Notes under the pieces: generated by a model
What the model saw: the letters and a program-made list of their open reading frames with translations, nothing else
What the model was told of the DNA's origin: nothing
Database searches by the model: none
In this document: piece by piece, positions 19,229 through 37,347 of the stretch
Layout of the letters: every line of letters begins with the position of its first letter
Numbering within the stretch: the first letter of the stretch is position 1
Assembly (NCBI RefSeq): GCF_014132355.1
Contig: NZ_BLZO01000071.1
Span: forward strand, 62,001-126,000
Length of the DNA stretch: 64,000 nucleotides
Source: Okeania sp. KiyG1
GTDB taxonomy: Bacteria; Cyanobacteriota; Cyanobacteriia; Cyanobacteriales; Microcoleaceae
Direction: 5' to 3'
Program-made: the position numbers and the translations under genes

Positions 19229-22200
19229 TCACTGTGTGCCACCCCTATTTGACTTAGCCAACTGTTTCGCTACCATCTCTGGGTCTGTTTCTATTTCCTC
19301 GGTATCTGGGTTGAGGTCAATATCTGGTTGCCATGTTTGAGCTTGCTTAAATAGAGAAATACCTAACTCAACTCTCTGATTTTCTATTATTAATTCCCTA
19401 CCCATTCGTAACAGATTTGTTGCTGCATTTAAACTGAAATTAGAGTCAAGTTTTACTGCTTGTTGAAACTGAGAAACTGCTTCCTCAAGCTTTCCCTCTG
19501 CTGCTAATTTCTCACCTTTTAAAAAGAAAGCTGTCGCAGAAGGCTCTATTTCACCGCAAAGATGTCGTTCTTTTTCTTCTAAGTTAGGGTTATTTTTCAG
19601 GTAGTCGCTCATCCACTTGCAAGCGTTGTCTATTAGCTCATCTCGGTTAAAATTCCACAGTTTGATAGTGTTATCCCAACTCCCCGAAGCTATCAATTTC
19701 CCATCGGGGCTGAATGCTAAAGCTTTGACAGAATTTTTGTACCCCGATAAAGTCTCAACTAAAGTGCCATCTGTTTTCCACAGTTTGATAGTGTTATCCG
19801 AACTCCCCGAAGCAATCAATTTCCCATCGGGGCTGAATGCTAAAGCTTTGACAGAATCGTCGTGCCCCGGTAAAGTCTCAACTAAAGTGCCATCTGTTTT
19901 CCACAGTTTGATAGTGTTATCCTCACCCCCCGAAGCAATCAATTTCCCATCGGGGCTAAATGCTATAGCAAAGACAGAATCGTCGTGCCCCGGTAAAGTC
20001 TCAACTAGAGTGCCATCTGTTTTCCATAGTTTGATAGTGTTATCCTCACTCCCCGAAGCAATCAATTTCCCATCGGGGCTAAATGCTATAGCAAAGACAG
20101 AATTTTTGTGCCCCGATAAAGTCTTAACTAAAGTGCCATCTGTTTTCCACAGTTTGATAGTGTTATCCAAACTCCCCGAAGCAATCAATTTTCCATCGGG
20201 GCTGAATGCTACAGCTGAGACATTATTATTGTGCCCCTGTAAAGTAGTAACTAAAGTGCCATCTGTTTTCCACAGTTTGATAGTGTTATCCAAACTCCCC
20301 GAAGCAATCAATTCCCCATCCGGACTGAATGCTACAGCTGAGACAGCATTCTTGTGATCCTGTAAAGTATCAACTAAAGTGCCATCTTTTTTCCACAGTT
20401 TGACTGTCCTATCCCCACTCCCCGAAGCAATCAATTCCCCATCCGGGCTGAATGCTACAGCTGAGACAGCATTATTGTGATCCTGTAAAGTAGCAACTAA
20501 AGTGCCATCTTTTTTCCACAGTTTGACTGTCCTATCCCCACTCCCCGAAGCAATCAATTCCCCATCCGGGCTGAATGCTACAGCTGAGACAACATCATTG
20601 TGCCCCTGTAAAGTATTAACTAAAGTGCCATCTGTTTTCCACAGTTTGATCGTATTATCATTACTTCCCGAAGCAATCAATTTTCCATCGGGGCTAAATG
20701 CTACAGCCCGGACATAACCATTGTGCCCCACTAAATGATTGACTTCCCTTCTTTGCCATTCAAGGATTTTTCGTAGTAAATTTGTACCTTGTTTCTGAAT
20801 AGCCTCATCCTTTGTTGCTTGTAATTTTTGAGCTAATTTTAGCACCTCCATCTGTACTTCTAAGCTAGAGTCTAAGCGGGGTTTTAATGTAGCTATTTCA
20901 GCTCTGAGATTAGCATTTGTTTCTCCAACAACTGCCCGACGCCACTGCCACACCGCCCCCACAGCAAATACTGATACTGCCACCAAACCACTCACCAACC
21001 CCAATATTGTCCTTCGCCTACGCTGTCGTTTCTCCTCTTCCTCTCGTTGACGCAACGCCATCCCCGCTGCAATAAATTCTTGAGTAAACTCAGACAACTC
21101 ATCACCATACTTAATATAAAGTTCCTCCGCATTCTGCAACGCCACACCCCGCAGTAAAAAATCATCCACTCGCTTATGTTGCACCCACTTCTTAGCATCC
21201 TGCTCCATCTGTCGTTGCTGTTGTAGGCGACTTCTATTTTCATCCAACCACCAACGTAAAGTTGACCAATGACGGATTAAGATTTCGTGAGCAACTTCTA
21301 CAGTAATTTCTGATCCCCCCAAACCCCCCTTGGGAAGGGGGGCTTTTTTGTTGTTGTTATCTTCTGGGGTGGAGTAGGGTGTTGTGGTATTGGGCAAACT
21401 TTCTTGTGAAAAAGCTACTTTTTCCTGCTGATGAGTCCCCCCCTTATTAAGGGGGGTTAGGGGGGATCTATCCCCACTAACAACAAGGGAAGCTTTTTCC
21501 TGCTGATGAGTTCCCCCCTTATTAAGGGGGGTTAGGGGGGATCTATCCCCACCAACAACAAGGGAAGCTTTTTCCTGCTGATGAGTCCCCCCCTTATTAA
21601 GGGGGGTTAGGGGGGATCTATCCCCACCAACAACAATTAACCGCGCATCACTCAACTTTTGCAACACAGACTCCATCACCTCTTTCCCATACTTCTTACC
21701 CAACAACTCTGACTTCAAAACCCGACGACGAGTATCCTTCCCCTCCTCACCCAACTGCACCAACTCCAGAAAAATAAACTGAGCGCAACTCTCCTCCTCC
21801 CCATGCAAACTTCGCCTCACATCCTCCGCTTTATTTTCCAACACCTCCTTAAAACCACCAATTTCCTCCTGATAAACCTGCAAACTCAACATTCCATCCC
21901 GGCGCTTTTCCCACAACTCCCGCAACACAAACTGCAACAATGGCAAACCCCCCAACTCCTCCTGCACCCCATCCAACAACACATCTACCAAACCAGACTC
22001 TACCTTTAACCCCACCTTCTCAGCAGGTTTAACTATAGCTTCATCAATAATTCCCAAATTATCAGCAGCTTTACCCAAAAAACCTTGAATCAAAAAATAA
22101 GTAAATAATCCATGTTCTATATCTTTCCATTCTCTAGATTGCTCATTCTTGTCACAAGATAAAAGCGCACAAAAACCTTGACTTTTAGCCGCTCTTTGTT

Positions 22201-22768
22201 CAAATGATTCAATTAATTTGGGAGTAATATTAGCTATTTTAGGGTCAGATATTTTTGTCTGTTTTGGCAAATTATGAAAATTAATTTCTGGTCCCCCACT
22301 ATGACAAGCGTCAATAAAAATTAATTGATATTTAGCACCACTTTCCAGCAATTTTTGCAGAACTTCTCCTACAGGTAAACCTGTTGTAGCTAAATTATTT
22401 ATTTGAGTATTTTTCAGACATAATATTGGTTGCTGAGTTTGTTTGTCTAAAAATCCATGACCAGAAAAATAAACTAAAATAGTATCTTCTTTCGTTGCCT
22501 GAGTAACTAATTGTTCTAAACTATGTTTTACTACATCAACAATCGGCAATTCCGGAGTATGGTCGTGATGAACAATAATATTTTTATCCGGGAAAACTTG
22601 TGTGGCTTTTTCTAATGCTATATTTAATTTTTGACAATCATTAACACAATAATTTAAGTCATCTATTCCCCCATCGTCATATTGATTAATTCCTACTAAT
22701 AAAACCAAAAACTTAGCTTCTCCAGTTTTGAGTTTTTCCACATTAGAATTCCCGGCAGATTTAGGCAT
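19229..22768 (-). CDS. Caspase-like protease with STAND remnant, TM segment, nine WD40 repeats
   Basis: 1179 residues. Residues 18-235 are a C14-type caspase fold: FLVLLVGINQYDD, catalytic His104 (YFSGHG) and Cys155 (FIDACHSG). At about 243 the sequence jumps to AIVKPAEKVGLKVESGLVD and GGLPLLQFVLRELWEKR, the C-terminal helical part of nSTAND1-type proteins; I see no Walker A or B core. Residues about 380-450 are three 25-residue repeats (GDRSPLTPLNKGGTHQQEK). A membrane span lies near 585-610 (GLVSGLVAVSVFAVGAVWQW), then nine WD40 repeats of 41 residues (about 675-1045) and a TPR-like pair (AEGKLEEAVSQFQQAVKL). Intact relatives are thought to sense signals through WD40 and trigger proteolysis; without the NTPase this one may work differently. 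Confidence 0.88.
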   Translation of the reverse strand: MPKSAGNSNVEKLKTGEAKFLVLLVGINQYDDGGIDDLNYCVNDCQKLNIALEKATQVFPDKNIIVHHDHTPELPIVDVVKHSLEQLVTQATKEDTILVYFSGHGFLDKQTQQPILCLKNTQINNLATTGLPVGEVLQKLLESGAKYQLIFIDACHSGGPEINFHNLPKQTKISDPKIANITPKLIESFEQRAAKSQGFCALLSCDKNEQSREWKDIEHGLFTYFLIQGFLGKAADNLGIIDEAIVKPAEKVGLKVESGLVDVLLDGVQEELGGLPLLQFVLRELWEKRRDGMLSLQVYQEEIGGFKEVLENKAEDVRRSLHGEEESCAQFIFLELVQLGEEGKDTRRRVLKSELLGKKYGKEVMESVLQKLSDARLIVVGGDRSPLTPLNKGGTHQQEKASLVVGGDRSPLTPLNKGGTHQQEKASLVVSGDRSPLTPLNKGGTHQQEKVAFSQESLPNTTTPYSTPEDNNNKKAPLPKGGLGGSEITVEVAHEILIRHWSTLRWWLDENRSRLQQQRQMEQDAKKWVQHKRVDDFLLRGVALQNAEELYIKYGDELSEFTQEFIAAGMALRQREEEEKRQRRRRTILGLVSGLVAVSVFAVGAVWQWRRAVVGETNANLRAEIATLKPRLDSSLEVQMEVLKLAQKLQATKDEAIQKQGTNLLRKILEWQRREVNHLVGHNGYVRAVAFSPDGKLIASGSNDNTIKLWKTDGTLVNTLQGHNDVVSAVAFSPDGELIASGSGDRTVKLWKKDGTLVATLQDHNNAVSAVAFSPDGELIASGSGDRTVKLWKKDGTLVDTLQDHKNAVSAVAFSPDGELIASGSLDNTIKLWKTDGTLVTTLQGHNNNVSAVAFSPDGKLIASGSLDNTIKLWKTDGTLVKTLSGHKNSVFAIAFSPDGKLIASGSEDNTIKLWKTDGTLVETLPGHDDSVFAIAFSPDGKLIASGGEDNTIKLWKTDGTLVETLPGHDDSVKALAFSPDGKLIASGSSDNTIKLWKTDGTLVETLSGYKNSVKALAFSPDGKLIASGSWDNTIKLWNFNRDELIDNACKWMSDYLKNNPNLEEKERHLCGEIEPSATAFFLKGEKLAAEGKLEEAVSQFQQAVKLDSNFSLNAATNLLRMGRELIIENQRVELGISLFKQAQTWQPDIDLNPDTEEIETDPEMVAKQLAKSNRGGTQ
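21425..21640. repeat. In-frame 75-bp tandem repeat with CCCCTTATTAAGGGG palindrome inside the caspase gene
   Basis: Three 75-bp units each hold a GAGTCCCCCCCTTATTAAGG-type palindrome, GGGGTTAGGGGGGATC and TTTTTCCTGCTGATG. They are nearly identical and keep the caspase reading frame. A fourth, degenerate G/C-rich piece (CCCCCCAAACCCCCCTTGGG) is at about 21315-21340. The motif is an intergenic repeat type of this genome captured inside a gene. Confidence 0.8.
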
Positions 22769-23501: not shown

Positions 23502-26500
23502 ATGATGAAAACCTTCAGAGTTGCATATTACCCCTTGTCTCTGTTGATGCCTCTACTCGCAATAGTAGTGCCGACTTCTGGGAAAGCACAACCCATCACT
23601 CCCGCTAATGATGGCACAGGTACAACCGTCAACCAAAACGGCAACCAATTTAACATCCAAGGAGGCACCCGTAGTGGCAGAAATCTCTTCCACAGCTTTG
23701 ATAAATTCAACGTCAACTCCGGCCAAACTGCCAACTTCCTCACCACCCCAGACACGCGCAATATTCTGGGCAGAGTTACAGGCGGCAATGCTTCTATTAT
23801 TAACGGTCTTATTCAAGTCATCGGCAGCAATTCCAACCTCTTGTTGATGAACCCTGCTGGAATGATATTTGGCCCTAATGCCAGTCTCAACTTACCCGCC
23901 TCATTTGCTGTTACTACTGCTACAGGTATTGGTTTCAACAGCAACAACTTCTGGTTTCAAGCTATGGGAACAAATGACTACTCAAACCTAGTGGGAAACC
24001 CCAGTGGTTATCGTTTTAATGTATCAAACCCAGGCGCAATAGTTAATGAGGGAAATTTAAGTTTAAACCCAGGGGAAAATTTGACCTTATTGGGTGGCAC
24101 AGTCATCAACACCGGGGAACTCTCCACCGCAGGAGGTAATGTTACTATCGCAGCAGTGGAAGGTGGCAGCACTCTGAGAATATCTCAACCAGGACATTTG
24201 TTAAGTTTAGATATATCCTCATCAGTGGGAATTACAGAAGAAACAAATTTCACACCATTATCATTGCCAGAATTATTAACAGGTGGGAATGAGACTCATG
24301 CTACATCTATGACTGTTAACGCTGATGGTGATGTAGTATTGATAGATTCAAATACCTTGGTTGCTGATACAGGGGACGCGAGAGCAGAAGCGAGTTCTAT
24401 TGTCTCTGGAAATATCGATGTTTCGATCCCCCCTAACCCCCATTCTACGAAAAGCGAAGCAACATCTGGCTTCCCCCTTTCTAAGGGGGACGGGAGGGGG
24501 ATTGCCCAAGGGGGGGATATCAATAGTCTCCTCCTTTCCAAGGGGGACGGAAGAGAGAATAAAGGCCAGATTAATGTGTTGGGCGATCGCGTAGCCATTA
24601 TCGATGCTAATATTAATGCTGATGGTATCAACGGAGGTGGAACAGTATTAATTGGAGGGGACTTTCAAGGCAATGGAATAGTGAGTAACTCTCAGCAGAC
24701 ATTTGTAAACAGCAATTCATTTATTTCTGCTGATGCTATTACAAATGGTGACGGAGGGAGAGTAATAATTTGGTCAGATGGAGTCACTAATTTTGCCGGG
24801 AATATTAGTGCTAAAGGGGGAGGATTTTCTGGAGATGGAGGGTTTGTTGAAGTATCGGGAAGACAACAATTAATATTTGATGGAAATGTCAATGTTAGTG
24901 CTGAATTTGGCAATCCAGGAACAATATTATTAGACCCAGAAAATCTGACGGTGGGAGAGTCAGAAAATACTGAAAATTCAGAAACAGAAATAGTAGATAA
25001 TAATTCGGAAGTGGCATCTGGTGATAATTCTGAAAATTCAGAAATAGAAACAGTAGATAATAATTCAGAATTGGCATCTGGTGATAATTCTGAAAATTCA
25101 GAAACCACAGAAAATATTGATAATTCAGAAATAGCAGAAAATACAAATTTAGAGACAGAAGTTACTTCTACAGAAATTGCTGATAACTCAGAAACAACAG
25201 AAACAGAAACACCAATAGACCCTTTTACTCAAGATGAAAATTCTGATGTCACAATTTCCGCAGAAAATCTTGGGGAATTATCAGGAGATATAATTTTATT
25301 TGCCGACAACGATATAACAATTAATGAAAAGATCGAAACTACCGAATCTGTGGAATTAAAAGCAGGTAGAAGTATTAATATAAATGCTGATATCGATACA
25401 TCAGTTGGTAATGGAAATATTGATTTACTTGGTAATAATGATGAGATGAATTTTGCTAATCGGAGTGAGGGGAAAGCTTCAATAAATCAATTAGATGGAA
25501 CGACATTAAATGCAGGCAGTGGAACTATTAATATTGAGTTAGGAAACTTAGGAGAAGTAGGGGATATTAATCTGGCAAATTTAACTACAACAGGGCAAGT
25601 TTTAGTTAATGCTAATGGGGGAAATATTGCCAGAGTTTCTAACAATTCAATTATTAATGCGGGTAGTGCTGTATTTGGAACTGTTGGAAGTGGGGAAATA
25701 GGTTCAGCAAATGCCCCTTTGCGGTTGGATGTCGAAAATATAGAGGCATTTACACTGAGTGGTAGCATATTTTTTGATGTGTTGGGAGATGTGAATGTTG
25801 GTGGTGTGAGTGAGGCTATAAATGGTATTTTGACTCTTGCTGGAGGTGATATTGTTCTGAATAGTGAGGGGGATGTGACTCTTACCGAAGATATTTCTAC
25901 CGATCCTTTTATTGAAACAGGGGGCGATATCAATCTTACTGCCAAAAACCTTTTTGTTAATGATGGCACTCAAATATCTGCCAGTACATTATTTACTCAG
26001 GAGGATGCAGGGAGTGTGGATATTACTGTAGAAGATAATATAGTATTGAATGGAGGTAGGATATTAAGTACAATATCCTCCGAAGCAGAGGGAAATGCAG
26101 GAAGCGTAAATATTACTACGAATTCTCTGATAATTCTTAATGGTGGTTTTATTGATAATAGTAACTTTGGAAAAGGGAATGGAGCAAATATTAATATTAT
26201 ATCAGAGGATATAGTGTTTAATGGAGTATCTCAATCTTCAAGGCCCAGTGGAGTATTTAGCGGGCTAGCAACAGGAGCAACAGGAAATGCAGGAGATGTG
26301 AATATTACAACGAGTTCTCTGATAGTTTCTGACGGCGCTCAAATAAATGCACTTACTAGAGGTATAGGAGATGGAGGGAATATAAATATTACAGCAGAGG
26401 ATATAGTGCTTGATGGTGGATCGCTAAATAGTACTGACAGTAGTGGGGTATTCAGTGCAGTAGGGCCAGAAGCAAAAGGGAAAGCTGGAGATGTGAGCAT

Positions 26501-29500
26501 TACCACTGATTCTCTGACAGTTACTAATGGTGCTCAAATCAATTCCAGTACAACTGGTATAGGGAATGCAGGAAGTATTAATATCGTAGCTGAAGATTCT
26601 GTAGTCTTTGATGGGGAAAACTCAGGATTTTTCACTGGAGTAGCTAGCTCAGTGCAACCAGGAGCAGAAGGGGATGCAAGGAGTGTCACTATTACCACTG
26701 ACTCTCTAGAGGTGAAAAATGGTGCTCAAATATCTGCCAGTACCTCTGGTCAAGGGAATGCAGGAAATGTGGAGATTCATGCTACTGATACTGTAGTTTT
26801 TGATGGAGGAGACTCAGAATTTTTCACTGGAGCAGATAGCTTAGTACAAGCAGGAGCAAAAGGGGATGCAGGGGGGTTCACTATTACTACCGACTCTCTA
26901 GAGGTGAAAAATGGTGCTCAAATCAATTCCAGTACCTCTGGTCAAGGGAATGCCGGAAATGTGGAGATTAATGCCACTGATACTGTAGTCTTTGATGGGG
27001 AAAACTCAGAATTTTTCACTGGAGTAGCTAGCTCAGTGCAACCAGGAGCAGAAGGGGATGCAAGGAGTGTCACTATTACCACCGGCTCTCTAGAGGTGAA
27101 AAATGGTGCTCAAATACTAGCTAGTACATTTGGCACAGGGAATGCAGGGAATGTGGAGATTAATGCCACTGATACTGTAGTCTTTGATCGAGGAGACGCA
27201 CTTAGCTCAGTGCAACCAGGAGCAGAAGGGGATGCAAGGAGTGTCACTATTACCACTGGCTCTCTGGAAGTTAAAAATGATGCTCAAATAGCTACCAGTA
27301 CATTTGGCACAGGGAATGCAGGAAATGTGGAGATTAATGCCACTGATACTGTAGTCTTTGATGGAGGAAGCGCAGTTAGCTCAGTGCAAGTAGGAGCAGA
27401 AGGGAAAGCGGGGGGGATTACTATTACCACAGGCTCTCTGGAAGTTAAAAATGGTGCTCAAATAAATGCCAGTACATTTGGCACAGGGAATGCAGGAAAT
27501 GTGGAGATTAATGCCACTGATACTGTAGTCTTTGATGAAGAAGACTCAGGATCGATCACTGCAGCAGTTAGCTCAGTGCGACCAGGAGCAAAAGGGAATG
27601 CGGGGGGTGTTACTATTACCACCAGCTCTCTGGAAGTTAAAAATGGTGCTTTTATATCTGCAAGTACGTTTGGTAAAGGGAATGCAGGGACTGTGGAGAT
27701 TAATGCCACTGATACTGTAGTCTTTGATCGAGGAGGTTCAGAGTTTTTCACTGGAGCAGCTAGCCAAGTGGCATCAGGAGCAGAAGGGGATGCAGGGGGT
27801 GTAACTATTACCACCGGCTCTCTGGAGATGAAAAATGGTGCTCAAATATCTGCTAGTACCTTTGGCACAGGTGATGCAGGTAATATATTCATCACAATAG
27901 ACACTCAACTCACCCTCGACGAAAATGCTGAAATTTCAGCCTTAACTGAAAGCAGTGGCAGAGGGGGCAACATCATCCTATTCGCTCCAGAAAGCCTCAA
28001 CATCGAAGGAGACGGAGAAATCACAGTAAGTAGCAGTGGCACAGGCAACGCTGGCCAAATTGATATCATCAGCCCCAACATTACTCTCGACGACGGCATA
28101 GACATCACAGCCTTCACCGCAGGCCCAGGCAACGCTGGCAACATCAATCTAGAAGGGGAGCAAATCAATATTCAACCTAATACCCAAATATTAGCTTTCA
28201 CCGAAACTACTGGAGATGGGGGGAACATCACAGTCAAAGCCACAGAAGCACTCAACTTAGAAGCAGACACTCAACTATCAGTGGAAACCAACAGAGGCGG
28301 AAAAGCGGGAAATATAGAAATTACAACTCCCCAACTAACAATAGGAGAAAACGCCCAAATTAGTGCCACAGTTAACCTCGGGGCAACCACAACAGATCCT
28401 GGTGGAAATATCACCATCAACACCAATGAATTAAACATCTCAGGCGAACTGGGAATATTTGCCGAAACTGAAGCAACAGCGGAGGCAGGAACACTCACTC
28501 TCAACCCTTACAAAACTGACCCCAACCTAGACATCACTTTCACAAATAATGGCTTCATCTCTGCCTCCACCAGCTCCACAGGTAACGGAGGAAATATCAA
28601 TCTCAGTGCCCCAGAAAGCATAAATATTAGAGGGGATGGTAGGATATCTGTTGAAACTACAGACAAAGGAAATGCTGGAGCTATCAATATCAATACTCAA
28701 AACCTGACGCTCTCGGATGGAGTAGCCATATCAGCTTCCACAGAAGACAAAGGCAATGCTGGAGTTATCAATATCAATACTCAAAACTTCACCTTAGAAA
28801 CCGGAACAACCCTAACCACAGAAACTAACAACAAAGGCCAAGCTGGAGATATAGAAATCAACACTAGAGAACTAACCATAGGAGAGGATGCCCAAATTAG
28901 TGCCACAGCAAGAGAAGGGGCAACTAACACTGAAGCGGGAGGTAATATTACTATCAATGCTACAGACTTACTAATTTCAGGCCGACTCGGAATATTTGCC
29001 GAAACAGTAGGGGAAACTCCGGCAGGTACTCTTACCCTTAAACCCTATAACAGAGATGGGGAGATGGGGGGATGGGGAGATGGGGAGATGGGGAGATGGG
29101 GAGAGTTTGAGAGTTTGAGAAGAGAAAATTATTCCGCTCGAATTGACCCGGATATCAATATTACTTTCACCGAAAATGGCTTTATATCTGCCCGCACTAA
29201 TTCTAGTGGAGATGGAGGTAACATCAATATATTTGCTCCAGAAAACATCAATATTTCAGGGGAAGGCAGAATAACAGTTGAAACTAGAGGCAGTGGAGAT
29301 GCAGGTCAAATAATAATTGAAACAGAAAACCTCACAATAGCGGAAAACACTACTATATCCGCAGCTACTTCTGGTGGTGGAGATGGAGGTAGGATCAACA
29401 TCAACTCCAGTGAAAGTTTTCAACTGGAAGGTCAAATTATTACAGAAACCACAGGTACAGGAAACGGAGGAAAAATTACTATTAATACAGGGTCTCTCCA

Positions 29501-32500
29501 AGCAGAAAATAGTACCATCTCAGCTAGAAGCACTGATGCAGGAAACGCAGGCGCAATAGAAATTACAGCTCAAGAAAATATTGCTACAGGTATTATTCAA
29601 TCTTCTGCCTCAGAGTCACAGGAAACTGCTGACGGAGGTAATATCAGCATCATTAGTGAACAAGGAGAAATTCGCGCCACCCAACCCATCCAGTCATTTT
29701 CGGAAAAAGGTAACGCCGGAAATGTGACTCTGACTGCCAAAACAGATGTTACCACCAATACTATTAGTTCCCACGGTCAACAACAAGGCGGTGAAATAAC
29801 TATCACAACAGAAACCGGAAACGTCAATACATCTCAAGGCTTTTTGGCCAATTATTCTGGAGATGGCAACGGAGGCAACGTTACTATAGAAGCACCCCAA
29901 GGAGATATTACCAGCAGCAATATTTACTCTTTCGCCGATGCAGATGGAGGTCAAATATTCCTCAAAGCTGGAGGCAACATTAATATCAGCCAAAACAGCA
30001 ATATTATCTCAGCGTCGGAACCTCAAGAAAAAGAGGGGGAGAGAGGGAGCGGGGGAGTGGGGAGAGGAGGAGATATTATTCTTGAAGCAGGCAACAATAT
30101 TAATACAGCAACAGCGAGAATATATTCCGGAGCAGATATTGGCGACACGGGCAAAATTGATATTATTGCGGATAGCGCAATAGAAGTAGGTCAAATAGAC
30201 CTAGCATCAGGTTTTGTCAGACAACAACAACCAGTAAATGACAACTTTACTCTTATACCCCTACCTCAAGGAGAAGCAACCAGGGGAGTTGCAGAAAATA
30301 TCACTATCACCAGTAACAATGGCGCAATAGATACCACCGCTGGGGTTATCAATTCTCGTTCTCCTGACGGGTCCGGTGATATTACTCTCAATGCTAGAGA
30401 TAATATTAGTATCGGTCTACTAAGAGCTAGCGCTCTTAACCCAGAAAAACCAACTACAGGAGGAGATATTACGATCGCTAGCCAAACTGGAGAAATAAAT
30501 GCCACAACAGCTATAGAAACTTTTTCAGAAAGAGGTACTGCTGGAAATGTGACTATTATGGCGGAGGAACACATTCATCTAGAAAATATTTTATCTCAGG
30601 GAGCAGAAGGAGGAGGGGATATTACTATAGAAAGTCGCAGTGAAAATAGTATAGATGCTCAAGGAGAGTTAAACACTTTTTCCACAGAAGGAATGGCTGG
30701 AAATGTCACTCTTACATCCCCTGGAAATATAAGTATTAGTGGCATTCGTTCTCAGGGAAGGGAACAGGGAGGTAATGTTACAGTTGAAAGTGAAATAGGT
30801 GAAATTAACTCAACTGGGGATATTGACTCTTTTTCAGAGCAAGGTAGAGGGGGAAATATCGATCTGAATGCTCCAGAAAGCGTGAATTTAGCAAATGTGT
30901 CATCTTTTGGTGCGACTGAAAGTGGTAATTTGAGGATACAGAGTCGTACCGCAACAGTTAATACAGGTAATGTGACTACACAAGCGCCGGAAGGAAGTAG
31001 TGGGAGTATAGTTATTAACGGAGAGGAAGTAGGTACGGGAGACTTAACTTCTATTGGTACAACGAGTGCAGGTGCAATAAATGTGGAAGCTACAGATGGT
31101 TCTATTACAACTTATGATATTGAAATTAGCTCTGATGGGACCATAGGAAATTTAATACTCAGAGCAACGGAGGATGTTAATACTGGAGATATTAATGAGA
31201 ATGCAGGAGATGGAGATACAAATATTAATATTGATTCTGGAGGAGACCAGAATATAGCAGAAATTAATCAAAATGCAGACGGCGATGCTAATAGTATTGC
31301 TATTGCACAAGGAGACCAGAATATAGCAGAAATTAATCAAAATGCAGACGGCGATGCTAATAGTATTGCTATTGCACAAGGAGACCAGAATATAGCAGAA
31401 ATCAATCAAAATACTGGAAATAATGCCACTAATATTGCCATTGCAGGAGGGAATCAAAATCTTGGAGCAGTTAATCAAAATACTGGTAATAATGCCACTA
31501 ATATTGCCATTGCAGGAGGGAATCAAAATCTTGGAGAAGTCAATCAAAATACTGGAAATAATGCTAATAATATTGCTATTGCAGGAGGGAATCAAAATCT
31601 TGGAGAAGTCAATCAAAATACTGGAAATAATGCCACTAATATTGCCATCGCAGGAGGGAATCAAAATCTTGGAGAAGTCAATCAAAATACTGGAAATAAT
31701 GCCACTAATATTGCTATTGCAGGAGGGAATCAAAATCTTGGAGAAGTCAATCAAAATACTGGAAATAATGCCACTAATATTGCTATTGCAGGAGGGAATC
31801 AAAATCTTGGAGAAGTCAATCAAAATACTGGAAATAATGCCACTAATATTGCCATTGCAGGAGGGAATCAAAATCTTGGAGAAGTCAATCAAAATACTGG
31901 AAATAATGCCACTAATATTGCCATTGCAGGAGGGAATCAAAATCTTGGAGAAGTCAATCAAAATACTGGAAATAATGCCACTAATATTGCCATTGCAGGA
32001 GGGAATCAAAATCTTGGAGAAATAAATCAAAATACCGGGAATGAATCTATCAATATTCAGAATGATGGAACTAATCAAAATCTTGGAGAAATAAATCAAA
32101 ATACCGGGAATGAATCTATCAACATTCAGAATGATGGAACTAATCAAAATCTTGGAGAAATAAATCAAAATACCGGGAATGAATCTATCAATATTCAGAA
32201 CAATGGAACTAATCAAAATCTTGGAGAAACTTCTGCAACTCCTAATAATAATACTCCGATTAATAATCCTCTCATTGATGGAGAAAATACGAATAATTCC
32301 AATATTTTAAATACTCCCCCAAATCCTTTAGATACAAATAGTCCAGAAATCCCTTCTACCTCCAATTTAATTTCAACTATCACCCCTAGTAACAACGACC
32401 AAACAATAAATACTGCCACTGCTAAAGAGCAAACTGAAGAATCTATCAACAACACCACCGACACTCAAAAAATATTAAATATAATTGATACTATTAATAC

Positions 32501-33740
32501 CAATACCCTGACAGTAGCCACAGGTTCAGACAAAATAGTAACAATGCTAGAACAACAGCGCATCAACGAATATTCAAATTACTTCGGAGAATACTTTGAC
32601 GAAAAATTACTTTCTACACAAAATGTCAGAGATATTTTAACAGATATAGCAAATCAAACCGGGAAAGAATCTGCTGTTGTTTATATCAATGCTTACTCAG
32701 ACCAATTACAGATAATCTTATTTACCAAAGAAGGTCAACCAATTCTCAAAACAATTGCTACAACAAATCGCGATAAATTAAAACTAGCCACCATAGAATT
32801 AATACTAGAAATTACCGATCCTAAACAACGCCAAACCACAAGTTATCTAGCAGCATCTCAACAATTATATCAATTATTAATAGCACCCATTGCTACCGAA
32901 TTAGAAGCAGCCAATATTGATACAATTTTATTTAGTATGGATGTAGGATTTCGTTTATTACCCTTAGCAGCTTTACATGATGGAAAACAATTTTTAATAG
33001 AAAAATACAGCATTAGTAGTATTCCCAGTGTCAGTTTAATGGATAGTCGTTATAATTCTGTTCATAATACTACTTTATTAGCTATGGGAGCCAGTGAATT
33101 TACAGAACAACCACCCTTATCTGCTGTACCTGTGGAGTTAGAAACTATTTCTCAAAATTTATGGCAGGGTAATATGTTTCTCAATGAAGAATTTACTCTG
33201 AAAAATTTGATTAATCAACGTCAAAATTATCCTTATCCGATAATTCATTTGGCTACTCATGCTGAATTTAATGGTGGAAATGTGAGTAATTCATATATTC
33301 AGTTGTGGGATGAAAAATTGCGATTAAATCAAGTCAGAAAGTTAGGTTGGAGTCAGCCACCAGTGGAATTATTAGTATTATCCGCTTGTCAAACCGCAGT
33401 AGGAAATAAAGAAGCAGAATTAGGTTTTGCTGGTTTTGCAGTGGCAACAGGAGTTAAGTCAGTATTGGCAAGTTTATGGTTGGTTAGTGATAAGGGAACA
33501 TTAGGGTTAATGACAGAATTTTATTCTCATTTAGGTAATACCAATATTAAAGCAGAAGTGTTGCGACAAACCCAGTTGGCAATGTTGAAAGGTAAAGTTG
33601 CGATCGAAGATGGAATTTTGAGGGGGTCTGGTAGTCGTGGGGAAGTACTTTTACCTCCTGAGTTGGCACATCAGAAAAATCAAAATTTTTCCCATCCTTA
33701 TTATTGGGCAGGGTTTACCATAGTTGGTAGTCCTTGGTAG
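23502..33740 (+). CDS. Giant two-partner-secretion haemagglutinin-like protein with C-terminal CHAT protease
   Basis: 3412 residues. A Sec signal peptide (about 1-29, ending near SGKAQ) is followed by a filamentous-haemagglutinin TPS domain (about 30-170; GNQFNIQGG, NILGRVTGG, NPAGMIFGP at 117). Next come an S/E/N-rich linker (about 485-580), then beta-helix-type repeats, including about nine ~60-residue units with SLEVKNGAQI, GNAGNVEINATDTVVFD (26.6-27.9 kb). From residue about 2588 there are fourteen 23-residue N/Q-rich repeats. The last ~400 residues are a CHAT domain with His3253 (IHLATHAEF) and Cys3296 (VLSACQTAVG). Export through a TpsB porin is expected from the TPS domain, but none is adjacent. 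The combination suggests an adhesin carrying a caspase-fold protease. Confidence 0.92.
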   Translation: MMKTFRVAYYPLSLLMPLLAIVVPTSGKAQPITPANDGTGTTVNQNGNQFNIQGGTRSGRNLFHSFDKFNVNSGQTANFLTTPDTRNILGRVTGGNASIINGLIQVIGSNSNLLLMNPAGMIFGPNASLNLPASFAVTTATGIGFNSNNFWFQAMGTNDYSNLVGNPSGYRFNVSNPGAIVNEGNLSLNPGENLTLLGGTVINTGELSTAGGNVTIAAVEGGSTLRISQPGHLLSLDISSSVGITEETNFTPLSLPELLTGGNETHATSMTVNADGDVVLIDSNTLVADTGDARAEASSIVSGNIDVSIPPNPHSTKSEATSGFPLSKGDGRGIAQGGDINSLLLSKGDGRENKGQINVLGDRVAIIDANINADGINGGGTVLIGGDFQGNGIVSNSQQTFVNSNSFISADAITNGDGGRVIIWSDGVTNFAGNISAKGGGFSGDGGFVEVSGRQQLIFDGNVNVSAEFGNPGTILLDPENLTVGESENTENSETEIVDNNSEVASGDNSENSEIETVDNNSELASGDNSENSETTENIDNSEIAENTNLETEVTSTEIADNSETTETETPIDPFTQDENSDVTISAENLGELSGDIILFADNDITINEKIETTESVELKAGRSININADIDTSVGNGNIDLLGNNDEMNFANRSEGKASINQLDGTTLNAGSGTINIELGNLGEVGDINLANLTTTGQVLVNANGGNIARVSNNSIINAGSAVFGTVGSGEIGSANAPLRLDVENIEAFTLSGSIFFDVLGDVNVGGVSEAINGILTLAGGDIVLNSEGDVTLTEDISTDPFIETGGDINLTAKNLFVNDGTQISASTLFTQEDAGSVDITVEDNIVLNGGRILSTISSEAEGNAGSVNITTNSLIILNGGFIDNSNFGKGNGANINIISEDIVFNGVSQSSRPSGVFSGLATGATGNAGDVNITTSSLIVSDGAQINALTRGIGDGGNINITAEDIVLDGGSLNSTDSSGVFSAVGPEAKGKAGDVSITTDSLTVTNGAQINSSTTGIGNAGSINIVAEDSVVFDGENSGFFTGVASSVQPGAEGDARSVTITTDSLEVKNGAQISASTSGQGNAGNVEIHATDTVVFDGGDSEFFTGADSLVQAGAKGDAGGFTITTDSLEVKNGAQINSSTSGQGNAGNVEINATDTVVFDGENSEFFTGVASSVQPGAEGDARSVTITTGSLEVKNGAQILASTFGTGNAGNVEINATDTVVFDRGDALSSVQPGAEGDARSVTITTGSLEVKNDAQIATSTFGTGNAGNVEINATDTVVFDGGSAVSSVQVGAEGKAGGITITTGSLEVKNGAQINASTFGTGNAGNVEINATDTVVFDEEDSGSITAAVSSVRPGAKGNAGGVTITTSSLEVKNGAFISASTFGKGNAGTVEINATDTVVFDRGGSEFFTGAASQVASGAEGDAGGVTITTGSLEMKNGAQISASTFGTGDAGNIFITIDTQLTLDENAEISALTESSGRGGNIILFAPESLNIEGDGEITVSSSGTGNAGQIDIISPNITLDDGIDITAFTAGPGNAGNINLEGEQINIQPNTQILAFTETTGDGGNITVKATEALNLEADTQLSVETNRGGKAGNIEITTPQLTIGENAQISATVNLGATTTDPGGNITINTNELNISGELGIFAETEATAEAGTLTLNPYKTDPNLDITFTNNGFISASTSSTGNGGNINLSAPESINIRGDGRISVETTDKGNAGAININTQNLTLSDGVAISASTEDKGNAGVININTQNFTLETGTTLTTETNNKGQAGDIEINTRELTIGEDAQISATAREGATNTEAGGNITINATDLLISGRLGIFAETVGETPAGTLTLKPYNRDGEMGGWGDGEMGRWGEFESLRRENYSARIDPDINITFTENGFISARTNSSGDGGNINIFAPENINISGEGRITVETRGSGDAGQIIIETENLTIAENTTISAATSGGGDGGRININSSESFQLEGQIITETTGTGNGGKITINTGSLQAENSTISARSTDAGNAGAIEITAQENIATGIIQSSASESQETADGGNISIISEQGEIRATQPIQSFSEKGNAGNVTLTAKTDVTTNTISSHGQQQGGEITITTETGNVNTSQGFLANYSGDGNGGNVTIEAPQGDITSSNIYSFADADGGQIFLKAGGNINISQNSNIISASEPQEKEGERGSGGVGRGGDIILEAGNNINTATARIYSGADIGDTGKIDIIADSAIEVGQIDLASGFVRQQQPVNDNFTLIPLPQGEATRGVAENITITSNNGAIDTTAGVINSRSPDGSGDITLNARDNISIGLLRASALNPEKPTTGGDITIASQTGEINATTAIETFSERGTAGNVTIMAEEHIHLENILSQGAEGGGDITIESRSENSIDAQGELNTFSTEGMAGNVTLTSPGNISISGIRSQGREQGGNVTVESEIGEINSTGDIDSFSEQGRGGNIDLNAPESVNLANVSSFGATESGNLRIQSRTATVNTGNVTTQAPEGSSGSIVINGEEVGTGDLTSIGTTSAGAINVEATDGSITTYDIEISSDGTIGNLILRATEDVNTGDINENAGDGDTNINIDSGGDQNIAEINQNADGDANSIAIAQGDQNIAEINQNADGDANSIAIAQGDQNIAEINQNTGNNATNIAIAGGNQNLGAVNQNTGNNATNIAIAGGNQNLGEVNQNTGNNANNIAIAGGNQNLGEVNQNTGNNATNIAIAGGNQNLGEVNQNTGNNATNIAIAGGNQNLGEVNQNTGNNATNIAIAGGNQNLGEVNQNTGNNATNIAIAGGNQNLGEVNQNTGNNATNIAIAGGNQNLGEVNQNTGNNATNIAIAGGNQNLGEINQNTGNESINIQNDGTNQNLGEINQNTGNESINIQNDGTNQNLGEINQNTGNESINIQNNGTNQNLGETSATPNNNTPINNPLIDGENTNNSNILNTPPNPLDTNSPEIPSTSNLISTITPSNNDQTINTATAKEQTEESINNTTDTQKILNIIDTINTNTLTVATGSDKIVTMLEQQRINEYSNYFGEYFDEKLLSTQNVRDILTDIANQTGKESAVVYINAYSDQLQIILFTKEGQPILKTIATTNRDKLKLATIELILEITDPKQRQTTSYLAASQQLYQLLIAPIATELEAANIDTILFSMDVGFRLLPLAALHDGKQFLIEKYSISSIPSVSLMDSRYNSVHNTTLLAMGASEFTEQPPLSAVPVELETISQNLWQGNMFLNEEFTLKNLINQRQNYPYPIIHLATHAEFNGGNVSNSYIQLWDEKLRLNQVRKLGWSQPPVELLVLSACQTAVGNKEAELGFAGFAVATGVKSVLASLWLVSDKGTLGLMTEFYSHLGNTNIKAEVLRQTQLAMLKGKVAIEDGILRGSGSRGEVLLPPELAHQKNQNFSHPYYWAGFTIVGSPW
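31264..32229 (+). repeat. Fourteen 69-bp tandem repeats encoding N/Q-rich 23-mers
   Basis: Units start every 69 bp from 31264 to 32161. The first two read INQNADGDANSIAIAQG, the next nine (I/V)NQNTGNNATNIAIAGG with one NNAN variant, and the last three INQNTGNESINIQNDG. Units share QN-x-x-G and N-Q at fixed spacing. Neighbouring central units are almost identical at DNA level, which indicates recent expansion or ongoing slippage. Confidence 0.95.
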
Positions 33741-34455: not shown

Positions 34456-36942
34456 TTATCCAACAAATGAGAAATTGTCAGCATCAAGTACAGGTGCATT
34501 GTCTAAGGTGACAAATAGACCTCCACTACCTAAACCAGCATCACTACCATTTTGGTTATAGAATAAATTACCATTATTTGTATTGTAAACAATTACAGCA
34601 TCTTCTGTCGCAGCATCATTATTACTGGTAACAGTGGCAAATACATCCTCAAAACTATCCCCACTATCAATAGCAGTGAAAGTTCTCCTGTTGATGAGGA
34701 TGATATCTCGCTCTATATCAAAATCAGTAATTCTATCTTCTCCCAAATCATCTTGGTCATAAGCTTGATTTGTATTAAAGATAAAGCGGTCAATACTCGC
34801 ACCACCTGTCATGATATCATCTCCTGGGCCACTATTGAGGCGATCACGACCAATTCCTCCATTAAGAGTATCATTACCACTACCACCAAACAAGCGGTCA
34901 AAACCAGGACGACCTTCTAAAATATCGTCGCCATCTTTACCATAAAGGAAGTCATTACCAAAACCACCAATAACAGTATCATCAGTTTCGCCACCAGCGA
35001 GAGTATCATCACCGTTAGTTCCTTTCACAAATAATACTCTCCGAATGCGCTCGTCTTCCTCTGGAGGTGTATCTGCATCGCTGAAACTAGGGTTGCCATT
35101 AGCCGGAAAATTGTCTGATAAATATTCAGCTAGCGCATCTTGCTCGGAACCATTATCAGTAAAGTTAGCATTATTAGTTGCTCCTGATGGCAAACTTTCA
35201 TTTACTAAGTTAACCTGATTTTCGCCAAACAGTTGGAAAGGATAACCATCACCTCCTTGGTCTACAAGGAAACTGAGAGTCACTAGCCGAATTTCTCGGT
35301 CTGGATCTCCTACTAAGGAGCCATTCTCCACTACCACATCGTCGATCGCTCCATTCTCATCTAGAACTGCCAGACTCCTGACGCGCTCTCCATCTGTGAC
35401 AAGACCTGTATCATCAAATTCAATTGCTTGTTGAGTAGCATCATAACTGAAAGTAAGACCGCCAACCTGCGGGAATTGACCGGGAGTTGCACCGTCTGTA
35501 GTTGCTGCAACACCATGCTCGATAATTTGTTTGAGTTCTTCTGCTGTAACTGTTAGTAGAGTCAGTCCGTTATTGAAGCGGAGGGTATTCTCAATATCTA
35601 GCTGGGAAATTTGCCCCTCTTCCTTGCCTGCAAAAGAGTTTCCAGCAGGAGGCAACTGCACTAAATCATCGGAAGTACCGCCAGCAGGAATAAACGACTG
35701 ACCGATATTGTCGCGGATACCGCCACCATTTTTAATGGAAACTACCACATCAGAGTCGTATTCTTTGGCAATAAATAAATTTGCATCCGCTGTCAAATTT
35801 CCCAAATTAGTTTCTTGGGTGCGGACATCTCCTCTTGTACCGTTGAGAAATACTTCTGTGGAACCTAAAATATTGCCATCTCTAGCAGAAATGTTGTCAT
35901 TAATAGCATTAGTAACAGCTACTACTGTCGGGTCAGCTACATCTTCAGGATCGACATCTTCCCCGTAAACTCGGTCAACTCCCTCATCATCAGTGGCATA
36001 AACACCACTTAAGTCTTCGTCAAAACTTGTAATAATACCGTTTTCGTCAAAGTCAGCAATGAGGCGACCGACATATTTATAGTTGCCGTCGGTGTTGATG
36101 ACTAATACAGGTTCATCGCTAGCAGAAGTAAATTCTAGAGGATAGGAACCCCCGCGAGTATCTCCATCTCGTAGGGGGTCATCTTCTGCAGCGAGGAGAG
36201 TATTGGAACCACCAGCCATAATGACATCGACATCTGTCAACAGTTCTGCTAATTCTTCTTCAATACTAATCTGCTGCATGTGACTCAGCAGAATAACTTT
36301 ATTAATACCTGTGGCGGTTAATTCATCTACTGTTTCTTGAATAATCTCAGCCAAAGCTGCAATATCGTCACTGTCTGAGGGAGAAACAACAAGATCGCCA
36401 GTGGAAGAAATGACAGGTAAGGAAGGAGTAGTTGCACCGACTATACCTATTTCTTCCCCACCTACTTCAATGACAACGCTCCCGGAAATTGTATTAGGTT
36501 GGGGCTCTCCACCATCTGGCACAACAAACTCTGCAAGATTATCATCAGTAGTAAAATCAATATTGCTGCTGAGGTAGGGAAACTGAGTACCTTGATAACC
36601 ATCGTCATCAATGCCCGGTCCAACGATTTCAGAGTTACTTGCAATGAGATTACCAAAGGTTCCTGTTCCCTGGTCTAATTCATGATTACCAACAGCAACT
36701 GCTTGAAACCCCAGAGCATTGTTAATTAAAATATCACCAATGCCTGGTTCGTCATAAATTCCGTCACTAGCATTGAAAAAAGGTCCGGGAATATAAATGT
36801 CTCCAGAAGATAATTTTAAGGTATTTGCAAAATCATCTTCTAGAGCATTAATAACTGCAGAAAAATTAACAGCATCTTCGATCGCCGAAATACCTGCTTC
36901 TTGATCGGCAGCATGAAGAATTTGCAGTTTAATTGGTTCCAT
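34456..36942 (-). CDS. Secreted 5'-nucleotidase/phosphatase-like enzyme with RTX-like repeats
   Basis: 828 residues. The N-terminal calcineurin-like part has ILHAADQEAG (Asp13), SSGDIYIPGPFF (Asp48), AVGNHELDQG (Asn86, His87), ILLSHMQ and VIMAGGSN, which match the metal-ligand order of 5'-nucleotidase family enzymes; the usual D-x-H of the first motif is D-x-E here. Residues about 360-620 are the 5'-nucleotidase C-terminal domain (ENTLRFNNGLTLLTVTAEELKQ). RTX-like repeats follow (about 640-730; GNDTLNGGIGRDRL, GPGDDIMTGG) with a tail almost identical in design to that of the giant adhesin at 48.8 kb. It likely frees phosphate from organic esters outside the cell. No signal peptide; type I export is expected. 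Confidence 0.87.
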   Translation of the reverse strand: MEPIKLQILHAADQEAGISAIEDAVNFSAVINALEDDFANTLKLSSGDIYIPGPFFNASDGIYDEPGIGDILINNALGFQAVAVGNHELDQGTGTFGNLIASNSEIVGPGIDDDGYQGTQFPYLSSNIDFTTDDNLAEFVVPDGGEPQPNTISGSVVIEVGGEEIGIVGATTPSLPVISSTGDLVVSPSDSDDIAALAEIIQETVDELTATGINKVILLSHMQQISIEEELAELLTDVDVIMAGGSNTLLAAEDDPLRDGDTRGGSYPLEFTSASDEPVLVINTDGNYKYVGRLIADFDENGIITSFDEDLSGVYATDDEGVDRVYGEDVDPEDVADPTVVAVTNAINDNISARDGNILGSTEVFLNGTRGDVRTQETNLGNLTADANLFIAKEYDSDVVVSIKNGGGIRDNIGQSFIPAGGTSDDLVQLPPAGNSFAGKEEGQISQLDIENTLRFNNGLTLLTVTAEELKQIIEHGVAATTDGATPGQFPQVGGLTFSYDATQQAIEFDDTGLVTDGERVRSLAVLDENGAIDDVVVENGSLVGDPDREIRLVTLSFLVDQGGDGYPFQLFGENQVNLVNESLPSGATNNANFTDNGSEQDALAEYLSDNFPANGNPSFSDADTPPEEDERIRRVLFVKGTNGDDTLAGGETDDTVIGGFGNDFLYGKDGDDILEGRPGFDRLFGGSGNDTLNGGIGRDRLNSGPGDDIMTGGASIDRFIFNTNQAYDQDDLGEDRITDFDIERDIILINRRTFTAIDSGDSFEDVFATVTSNNDAATEDAVIVYNTNNGNLFYNQNGSDAGLGSGGLFVTLDNAPVLDADNFSFVG

Positions 36943-37090
36943 ATAATTTTCTAATTAAATTTCATGATTTTTCTAAGTCATCATATCTCTATAAAATTAA
37001 GTAATCTTTAACAAAAGTTTGGCATTAGGTTAAGTATAGTTTAAGCAAAAAAACACACACTCCGATCGAAATGTTAATATTCTTAAGTAG

Positions 37091-37168
37091 GCTTATTTCA
37101 GTTATCAGTTATCAGTTATCAGTTATCAGTTATCAGTTATCAGTTATCAGTTATCAGTTATCAGTTAT
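37091..37168. repeat. TTATCAG heptamer array
   Basis: About ten tandem copies of a 7-base unit (CAGTTAT/TTATCAG) lie in the divergent region between the nucleotidase and PhnD-like genes. Positions 37195-37320 hold a rearranged copy of the dispersed repeat with the GGCAAGGTTTCCTCGCC palindrome. Confidence 0.8.
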
Positions 37169-37347
37169 CAGTACCTCAAATCTGAAGTTTATTTTCTCTT
37201 GGTCGATTGGATATGGCAAGGTTTCCTCGCCATCCCACTCTACGGGAAGCTGCGAAGATAGACCGCTTTTCATCCCTTTAATAAAGGGAGGCTTGAGACC
37301 TTACTTTTTGGTCAATAATTGCTCTAATTATGCTTGGTAATAAAGAT

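What the first reader, a model, noticed from the sequence alone, without database searches (positions are those of the whole stretch)
23502..33740. Two-partner-secretion haemagglutinin with a C-terminal CHAT protease
A 3412-residue exoprotein starts with a signal peptide and TPS domain and ends with a caspase-fold CHAT domain with His3253 and Cys3296 in canonical motifs. Known: CHAT domains usually sit with TPR proteins inside cells, and TPS proteins are surface adhesins. A surface adhesin carrying its own caspase-like protease could process itself, its neighbours or rivals on contact. A caspase gene lies next door in the opposite orientation.
Basis: partly seen in the sequence, partly recalled or inferred. 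Interest (0 to 1): 0.78.

Follow-up and report, generated by a model that had tools for sequence, protein, structure and literature searches.

The report
Secreted cyanobacterial adhesin with caspase-like tail
A giant protein of a marine cyanobacterium, built for secretion to the cell surface, ends in an apparently intact caspase-like protease and belongs to a cyanobacterial family that travels with its own outer-membrane transporter.

Summary
Window 23502-33740 (+) is one 3412-aa frame: signal-like start, TPS secretion domain (PF05860, E 2.3e-42), long repeats, C-terminal CHAT (PF12770, E 5.7e-65) with His3253 and Cys3296, the protein's only cysteine. It is not unique: the genome has seven TPS-CHAT genes (one frame-broken, one cut by a contig end), and 42 of 77 related loci hold TPS and CHAT in one frame. 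His and Cys are present in 110 of 113 CHAT rows; the other three are fragments. A TpsB transporter clade occurs in exactly the 25 of 97 other cyanobacterial genomes that carry this TPS clade. The window's assembly lacks it because it falls between two contig ends; all five congeners searched have it. The neighbouring caspase gene is local: decayed in two relatives, not found in a third, and not found beside the other six paralogs. Best reading: a TpsB-secreted surface fibre whose constant terminal protease processes itself or envelope proteins while the stalk diversifies. Fold, proteolysis, substrate and final location are inferred; the structure job never finished. My paper searches found no TPS-CHAT report.

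The parts
23502..23591 (+). Signal-like N-terminus (aa 1-30)
   Evidence: Sequence reading only
23613..24227 (+). TPS secretion domain (aa 38-242)
   Evidence: PF05860 E 2.3e-42; TIGR01901 E 2.9e-23
24909..25271 (+). Acidic stretch without K or R (aa 470-590)
   Evidence: K+R 0, D+E 28%
25269..31211 (+). Repetitive stalk (aa 590-2570), including a 192-bp repeat array at 26526-27884
   Evidence: Composition; tandem repeats; a beta-helix is inferred, not modelled
31241..32180 (+). Near-identical 69-bp (23-aa) tandem repeats; length differs from orthologs L012 and L013 by multiples of 69 bp
   Evidence: no Curlin hit, only a 31-bit GnsAB_toxin match without a significant stretch
32172..32531 (+). 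N/S/T-rich linker (aa 2891-3010)
32532..32852 (+). Pre-CHAT region (aa 3011-3117)
32853..33731 (+). CHAT domain (aa 3118-3410) with His3253 and Cys3296, the only Cys of the protein
   Evidence: PF12770 E 5.7e-65
19229..22768 (-). Neighbouring EACC1-type caspase - nSTAND1 - WD40 protein; not a conserved partner
   Evidence: PADLOC caspase model E 2.9e-17

Best explanation
This is a TPS exoprotein (TpsA type). Its signal sequence and TPS domain send it through a dedicated TpsB pore to the cell surface, where the repetitive stalk forms a long fibre that ends in a tethered CHAT cysteine peptidase. The two ends are constant and the stalk varies. I infer that the CHAT is an active, regulated protease that matures, trims or sheds this fibre and its sister exoproteins, or cuts other envelope proteins, so shaping surface contacts of filaments or mats. 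Shown by sequence: architecture, dyad conservation, matching distribution with a TpsB clade, cysteine depletion. Inferred: fold, secretion, proteolysis, final location, substrate and biological role.
For: TPS and CHAT in one frame, and in 42 of 77 related loci. His and Cys in 110 of 113 CHAT rows; two others lack both sites and one (L044, a piece of a frame-broken gene) begins at the His column and reads F there. One Cys in 3412 aa, the catalytic one; of 57 TPS-CHAT frames 55 have exactly one Cys in the last 296 aa and 27 only one in the whole frame (L042, L046 and L085 dropped by a motif filter). TpsB clade in exactly the same 25 of 97 genomes as the TPS clade; 18 and 18, identical, without the seven seed genomes. 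TpsB within 6 kb of 8 of 63 TPS-CHAT frames. TPS of the same clade joined to a different CHAT in L103, L106, L107. 18 of 68 listed TPR-CHAT genes within 12 kb of a generic TPS, 0.55 expected. Ends constant, middle variable. Signal-bearing Trypsin_2 genes near TPS-CHAT in 4 loci.
Against: No activity, fold or localisation shown; the structure job did not finish. No substrate or cleavage site identified. TPS of the same clade without CHAT in the frame: L093, L101, L102; G038:C23 also shows none, but the CHAT search scored only 18 of 30 candidates there. The same CHAT clade also occurs alone as a ~450-aa protein with a signal-like or membrane start, so the stalk is not needed for whatever it does. 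Most TPS-CHAT frames (55 of 63) have no such TpsB within 6 kb. It could stay periplasmic, as the FhaB prodomain does (title seen in the reference list of PMC5422565). Two cyanobacterial exoproteome papers (PMC4390845, PMC11424642) have no occurrence of CHAT, caspase or h(a)emagglutin in the main text (supplements not searched).
Confidence: 0.5

Rival explanations
1. Contact sensor: the variable stalk recognises a partner, rival or phage surface and this switches on the constant CHAT, which cleaves an envelope substrate to signal to or kill the own cell.
For: Constant ends with a variable middle; several paralogs in some genomes (1-8 TPS of the clade); genes with CHASE2, an extracellular sensor domain, lie within 4 kb of TPS-CHAT in L015, L081, L089, L139 (Pfam) and, by similarity, L083; in L081 and L083 the gap is 64 bp and the L081 gene is a CHASE2 histidine kinase followed by a response-regulator protein; local EACC1-type caspase neighbour.
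Against: Caspase neighbour not conserved. PADLOC gives only a weak BovA match for the CHAT part, 26.5 bits, and nothing for the TPS domain. CHASE2 genes are near only a few of the frames examined, and no control frequency was computed.
Confidence: 0.2
2. The CHAT stays in the periplasm as a prodomain-like tail that only controls its own secretion, like the FhaB C-terminus.
For: CHAT is at the very C-terminus, presumably last to leave.
Against: The same CHAT clade occurs without stalk as a separate protein with a signal-like start, suggesting an activity of its own.
Confidence: 0.18
3. Inter-bacterial effector of CDI type: the CHAT is delivered into neighbours after contact.
For: TpsA scaffold with a C-terminal enzymatic domain, as in CdiA (TPS review PMC5422565, passages read).
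Against: CHAT conserved (60-95% identity to eight relatives) while the stalk varies, the reverse of CDI. No VENN and no (E/Q)LYN in the window protein; VENN near the CHAT in 1 of 63 frames. No recurring candidate immunity family was seen among neighbours, though a small downstream frame is often present.
Confidence: 0.07
4. The CHAT is a structural cap or pseudo-enzyme without proteolysis.
For: I read no demonstration of activity for this clade.
Against: Dyad present in 110 of 113 rows, the rest fragments; the catalytic Cys is kept in proteins otherwise nearly free of Cys.
Confidence: 0.05

Closest known systems
TPS exoproteins (TpsA: FhaB, HMW1, CdiA), type Vb secretion
   Same: Signal-like start, PF05860 TPS domain, long repeats, matching TpsB clade
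   Different: C-terminal CHAT, constant C-terminus, one TpsB for up to several exoproteins. The TPS review PMC5422565 has no occurrence of CHAT or caspase and says that genes for putative TpsA maturation proteases appear not to lie in the TPS operons (passages read)
CHAT proteins HetF and Craspase TPR-CHAT
   Same: CHAT domain; the His/Cys dyad of those proteins is recalled
   Different: HetF is a membrane protein at the septum with TPRs (PMC8406250, passages read); Craspase TPR-CHAT works on CRISPR RNA complexes (PMC9935389, PMC11089037, abstract starts in a search listing). Here: export domain, no TPR found
Secreted CHAT proteins of marine picocyanobacteria
   Same: 'secreted CHAT domain-containing proteins' are named for a Synechococcus genomic island (PMC7522525, one passage read)
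   Different: No hemagglutinin word in that paper's main text; none of the genomes of the small-genome family f20 in our survey has a TPS or CHAT hit at the cut-offs used; that f20 are picocyanobacteria is my guess
Gingipains RgpA/Kgp (recalled, no call)
   Same: Secreted caspase-like fold joined to haemagglutinin/adhesin domains, self-processing
   Different: Type IX secretion, protease N-terminal, different peptidase family; analogy only

Membership tests
TPS exoprotein (TpsA) | TPS secretion domain after a signal sequence | tested here: met
   PF05860 E 2.3e-42, TIGR01901 E 2.9e-23; signal sequence by reading only
TPS exoprotein (TpsA) | Cognate TpsB (POTRA_2 + ShlB) | tested here: met
   By distribution and neighbourhood in relatives: 25 of 97 genomes each, identical sets; within 6 kb of 8 TPS-CHAT frames; POTRA_2 and ShlB hits for one of them (L091). 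In the own genome the place falls between the ends of contigs C124 and C68. Physical pairing not tested
TPS exoprotein (TpsA) | Secretion to the surface through TpsB | not testable with these tools
   Needs experiment
TPS exoprotein (TpsA) | Beta-helical fold | not tested
   The full-length job (A5) was never accepted
CHAT peptidase (PF12770) | CHAT profile match over full length | tested here: met
   aa 3118-3410, profile 3-289 of 289, E 5.7e-65
CHAT peptidase (PF12770) | Catalytic His and Cys | tested here: met
   H3253, C3296; both in 110 of 113 rows
CHAT peptidase (PF12770) | Caspase fold | tested here: inconclusive
   Job accepted but not finished; no solved relative by sequence
CHAT peptidase (PF12770) | Proteolytic activity | not testable with these tools
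   Needs experiment
CDI toxin (CdiA) | Polymorphic C-terminal toxin after a conserved junction motif | tested here: not met
   CHAT conserved, stalk variable; no VENN or (E/Q)LYN
CDI toxin (CdiA) | Downstream immunity gene | tested here: inconclusive
   A same-strand frame of 80 aa or more begins within 300 nt in 31 of 62 cases, chance included, no control made
Known anti-phage defence system | PADLOC model over the protein | tested here: not met
   TPS part none; CHAT part only BovA, 26.5 bits; the stalk was not scanned

The most novel reading that the evidence does not exclude
Filamentous cyanobacteria display a family of diversified surface fibres, each tipped with the same constant caspase-like protease and exported by one shared transporter: an extracellular sensor-protease repertoire in which a variable stalk recognises self, kin, partner or phage and switches on a fixed cutter outside the cell.
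Probability: 0.2. Interest if true: 0.88.

Novelty: new variant of a known kind. Interest (0 to 1): 0.62.

Why it matters
Caspase-fold proteins of cyanobacteria are mostly discussed as intracellular cell-death or division factors (titles and passages seen). A clade that keeps its active-site Cys while losing nearly all others, carries a secretion domain, and shares its distribution with its own TpsB would move caspase-like proteolysis to the cell surface of phototrophs. It would also be a TPS fibre with a built-in protease, and it is directly testable by genetics: in 22 of the 25 genomes a single TpsB gene of the clade was found.

Tried and rejected
Caspase next door as functional partner: not supported. 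The profile of this caspase (two sequences) hits only the window, L140/L012 (one genome) and L141, and weakly (33 bits) an nSTAND1-WD40 protein downstream of a CHAT in L029; the upstream stretch of a third congener (L142) has no hit; nor have the six other own-genome paralogs with 10 kb or more on each side unless a contig ends first (E up to 1e-3; other caspase families not sought). Own-genome C185 as the TpsB: it is Omp85. C128 as the TpsB: a TPS-TpsB fusion outside the clade. Curlin-like repeats: resemblance by eye only. Phase variation by the 8-bp repeat at 29053-29104: not pursued; the orthologs with frame breaks (L011, L013) are metagenome assemblies. Viral carriage: 123 pattern stretches, none a relative. 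Plasmids: 116 records match the CHAT part, the first-ranked at 51.6% identity, a 450-aa stand-alone form in Nostoc. Solved structures by sequence: no credible match. A peptide in a Nostoc extract assigned to a CHAT protein (PMC9895726, passage read) resembles the TPS domain by eye; too weak to use.

Limits: score cut-offs for the TPS clade (231 against 151 bits) and the TpsB clade (620 against 552) were drawn at gaps after seeing the data. The TpsB profile was seeded from 8 genes within 4.5 kb of TPS genes of this clade in 7 genomes; 7 of those TPS are CHAT fusions, L093's is not. Genomes share ancestry, so Fisher p values overstate independence. The genome-contig scan kept the best 80 of 464 relatives, itself from a capped pattern list. 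The Cys contrast between own-genome CHATs with and without a signal-like start is marginal: 7 of 10 against 2 of 10 with exactly one Cys, one-sided p 0.04, one row left out because its frame is open at the 5' side, two rows just under the cut and one without an ATG counted as without signal. Neighbour families have no control frequency. The TpsB and CHAT trees are 'quick' trees, and the CHAT tree warns of long branches.

Full report
Observation. The window holds a single frame of 3412 aa at 23502-33740 (+). It starts with a signal-like sequence (by reading). The first 300 aa match the TPS domain (PF05860, E 2.3e-42; TIGR01901, E 2.9e-23); the scan of the whole protein listed only CHAT. The end matches CHAT over the whole profile (aa 3118-3410, E 5.7e-65).

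Not unique. The own genome (10.98 Mb, 198 contigs) has 65 CHAT matches, fragments included, and 11 TPS matches. Seven TPS-CHAT genes were read: C5, C47, C60 (split by a frame break), C71 (the window), C98 (cut by a contig end), C109 and C117 (a compact 936-aa frame). A scan of one genome per species with the seven C-termini gave 77 loci (best 80 of 464 relatives kept). The nearest three are Okeania at 94-97% identity, so the window is very likely Okeania (inference); most named genera are filamentous (recalled). Of the 77 loci, 42 hold TPS and CHAT in the same frame, 17 have a CHAT frame that runs off the sequence end (one of them, L086, carries a stand-alone CHAT as well), 9 are stand-alone, 7 have a TPS in another frame of the locus, and 2 are other.

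Catalytic site. Of 113 CHAT rows gathered (near copies included), 110 have the His and the Cys. Of the other three, two are fragments without either site, and one, a piece of the frame-broken L044, has the Cys but begins at the His column and reads F there. Of 57 TPS-CHAT frames, 55 have exactly one Cys in the last 296 aa and 27 have one Cys in the whole frame; L042 and L046 (TPS-CHAT) and L085 were dropped by a motif filter. Of 14 rows classed as stand-alone 12 have two Cys; the two with one (L028, L040) are pieces next to TPS frames. Of 21 own-genome CHATs that I chose to examine, 20 entered the comparison: 7 of 10 with a signal-like start have one Cys in the domain, against 2 of 10 without (one-sided p 0.04). 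One with a signal-like start by eye (L167) has no Cys at all. I read this as an exported, oxidising setting in which the catalytic Cys is kept by selection; that is inference.

Transporter. With a profile of these eight I surveyed 98 cyanobacterial genomes, the own one included. The TPS clade (231 bits or more; next 151) is in 25 of 97 other genomes. The TpsB clade (620 bits or more; next 552) is in exactly the same 25. Without the seven seed genomes it is 18 and 18, identical. The CHAT clade (300 bits or more) is in these 25 and in two more, G064 and G068. A tree of 52 TpsB sequences puts the TpsB clade on one side of a branch (SH-aLRT 85, quick method). The 25 genomes carry 1-8 genes of the TPS clade and 1-2 TpsB, so one pore often serves several fibres (inference). 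A further Okeania TPS-CHAT (L139) also lies beside a TpsB, making 8 of 63 TPS-CHAT frames with one within 6 kb.

The missing partner. The own genome has no TpsB at clade-level score, while all five congeners searched do (791-806 bits). In congener G101 the gene is at L173 7104-9185. The match to its left flank stops at the last base of own contig C124 (53261), and a match to its right flank lies at the end of own contig C68 (108797 of 108798), in consistent orientation. The gene's place therefore falls into an assembly gap. That it is present there is inferred from synteny.

TPS and CHAT belong together more widely. The CHAT tree (quick, with a long-branch warning) puts most stand-alone forms in one group inside the TPS-CHAT clade (97) and places L103 and L106 far away. 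L103 and L106 are TPS proteins with TPRs and a different CHAT, and L107 looks like L106, so the fusion arose at least twice unless long branches mislead. TPR-CHAT genes lie within 12 kb, same strand, of a generic TPS gene in 18 of 68 listed cases, 0.55 expected under uniform placement. In the own genome one cluster reads TPS, TPS, TpsB (in several frames), TPR-CHAT with a signal-like start. Of 57 listed TPS of the clade, 46 have the CHAT in the same frame. Of the other 11, 3 carry the other CHAT type, 2 are frame breaks, 1 is at a contig end, 1 was not resolved, 3 were fetched and show no CHAT, and 1 (G038:C23) was not fetched.

Anatomy. Against eight relatives the TPS domain is 56-98% and the CHAT 60-95% identical, the stalk 1-80% and the repeats 0-43%. 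The 69-bp repeats differ from orthologs L012 and L013 in multiples of the unit. So the ends are constant and the middle varies. This fits a variable adhesive or recognising stalk with a constant protease and argues against a polymorphic CDI toxin.

Neighbours. DUF928 lies within about 100 bp of TPS-CHAT in 5 loci (L081, L083, L089, L091, L139), Trypsin_2 proteins within about 2 kb in 4 (L068, L077, L095, L096), all by Pfam. CHASE2 genes lie within 4 kb in L015, L081, L089 and L139 (Pfam) and by similarity in L083; in L081 and L083 the distance is 64 bp. These come from 658 neighbour pairs clustered; no control frequency was computed. A COP23-CHAT fusion occurs in L059. The caspase beside the window gene recurs at this locus in two more Okeania genomes, shortened or disrupted, not in a third (L142), and not near the six other own-genome paralogs.

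Literature. 'CHAT domain' with 'two-partner secretion', with 'filamentous hemagglutinin', with 'adhesin', or with 'haemagglutin' and 'cyanobacteria' gave 0 papers. 'CHAT domain' with 'cyanobacter' gave 7; in five I read passages. One mentions secreted CHAT proteins in picocyanobacteria (PMC7522525). Two cyanobacterial exoproteome papers have no such words in the main text. A paper on bacterial cell-death domains (PMC8195603, passages read) describes caspases with EACC1/EACC2 parts and CHASE2 but has no adhesin or hemagglutinin. The library holds open-licence papers only. PLSDB's gene table calls a stand-alone relative 'CHAT domain-containing protein'; how databases name the fusions I did not see.

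Mechanism. Most likely the protein is secreted by the dedicated TpsB, stands on the surface as a fibre, and its CHAT processes this and sister fibres or other envelope proteins (confidence 0.5). Steps shown by sequence: export domain, partner clade, intact dyad. Steps inferred: fold, secretion, activity, substrate. 

Noticed in passing
L007 7489-12351 (own contig C128); L105 2767-7119: TPS, POTRA_2 and ShlB in one single frame (1621 and 1451 aa): a fused TpsA-TpsB protein in two genomes.
   Followed up: partly
L009 5023-6541 (own contig C91): Five tandem 306-bp copies (98% matches) in a stretch where the CHAT search finds several partial CHAT 3' ends with stops, between two full CHAT genes.
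   Followed up: no
window 29053-29104: 8-bp repeat (GAGATGGG, 6.5 copies) inside the coding frame; counts of the unit differ in Okeania orthologs.
   Followed up: partly
window 37098-37172: Perfect heptamer repeat TCAGTTA, 10.7 copies, inside the small frame 37071-37340.
   Followed up: no
window 34456-36942 (-): 5'-nucleotidase C-terminal domain with RTX calcium-binding repeats, facing the TPS-CHAT gene.
   Followed up: no
L167 (own contig C84): CHAT protein with a signal-like start by eye and no Cys at all: a likely exported pseudo-CHAT.
   Followed up: no
L059 2312-4174 (Argonema): COP23 domain fused to a CHAT of the same clade.
   Followed up: no
L081 11327-14821: CHASE2 histidine kinase 64 bp downstream of TPS-CHAT, followed by a response-regulator kinase.
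   Followed up: partly
L029 3189-6818: nSTAND1-WD40 protein downstream of a CHAT frame, with a weak match to the window's caspase profile.
   Followed up: no
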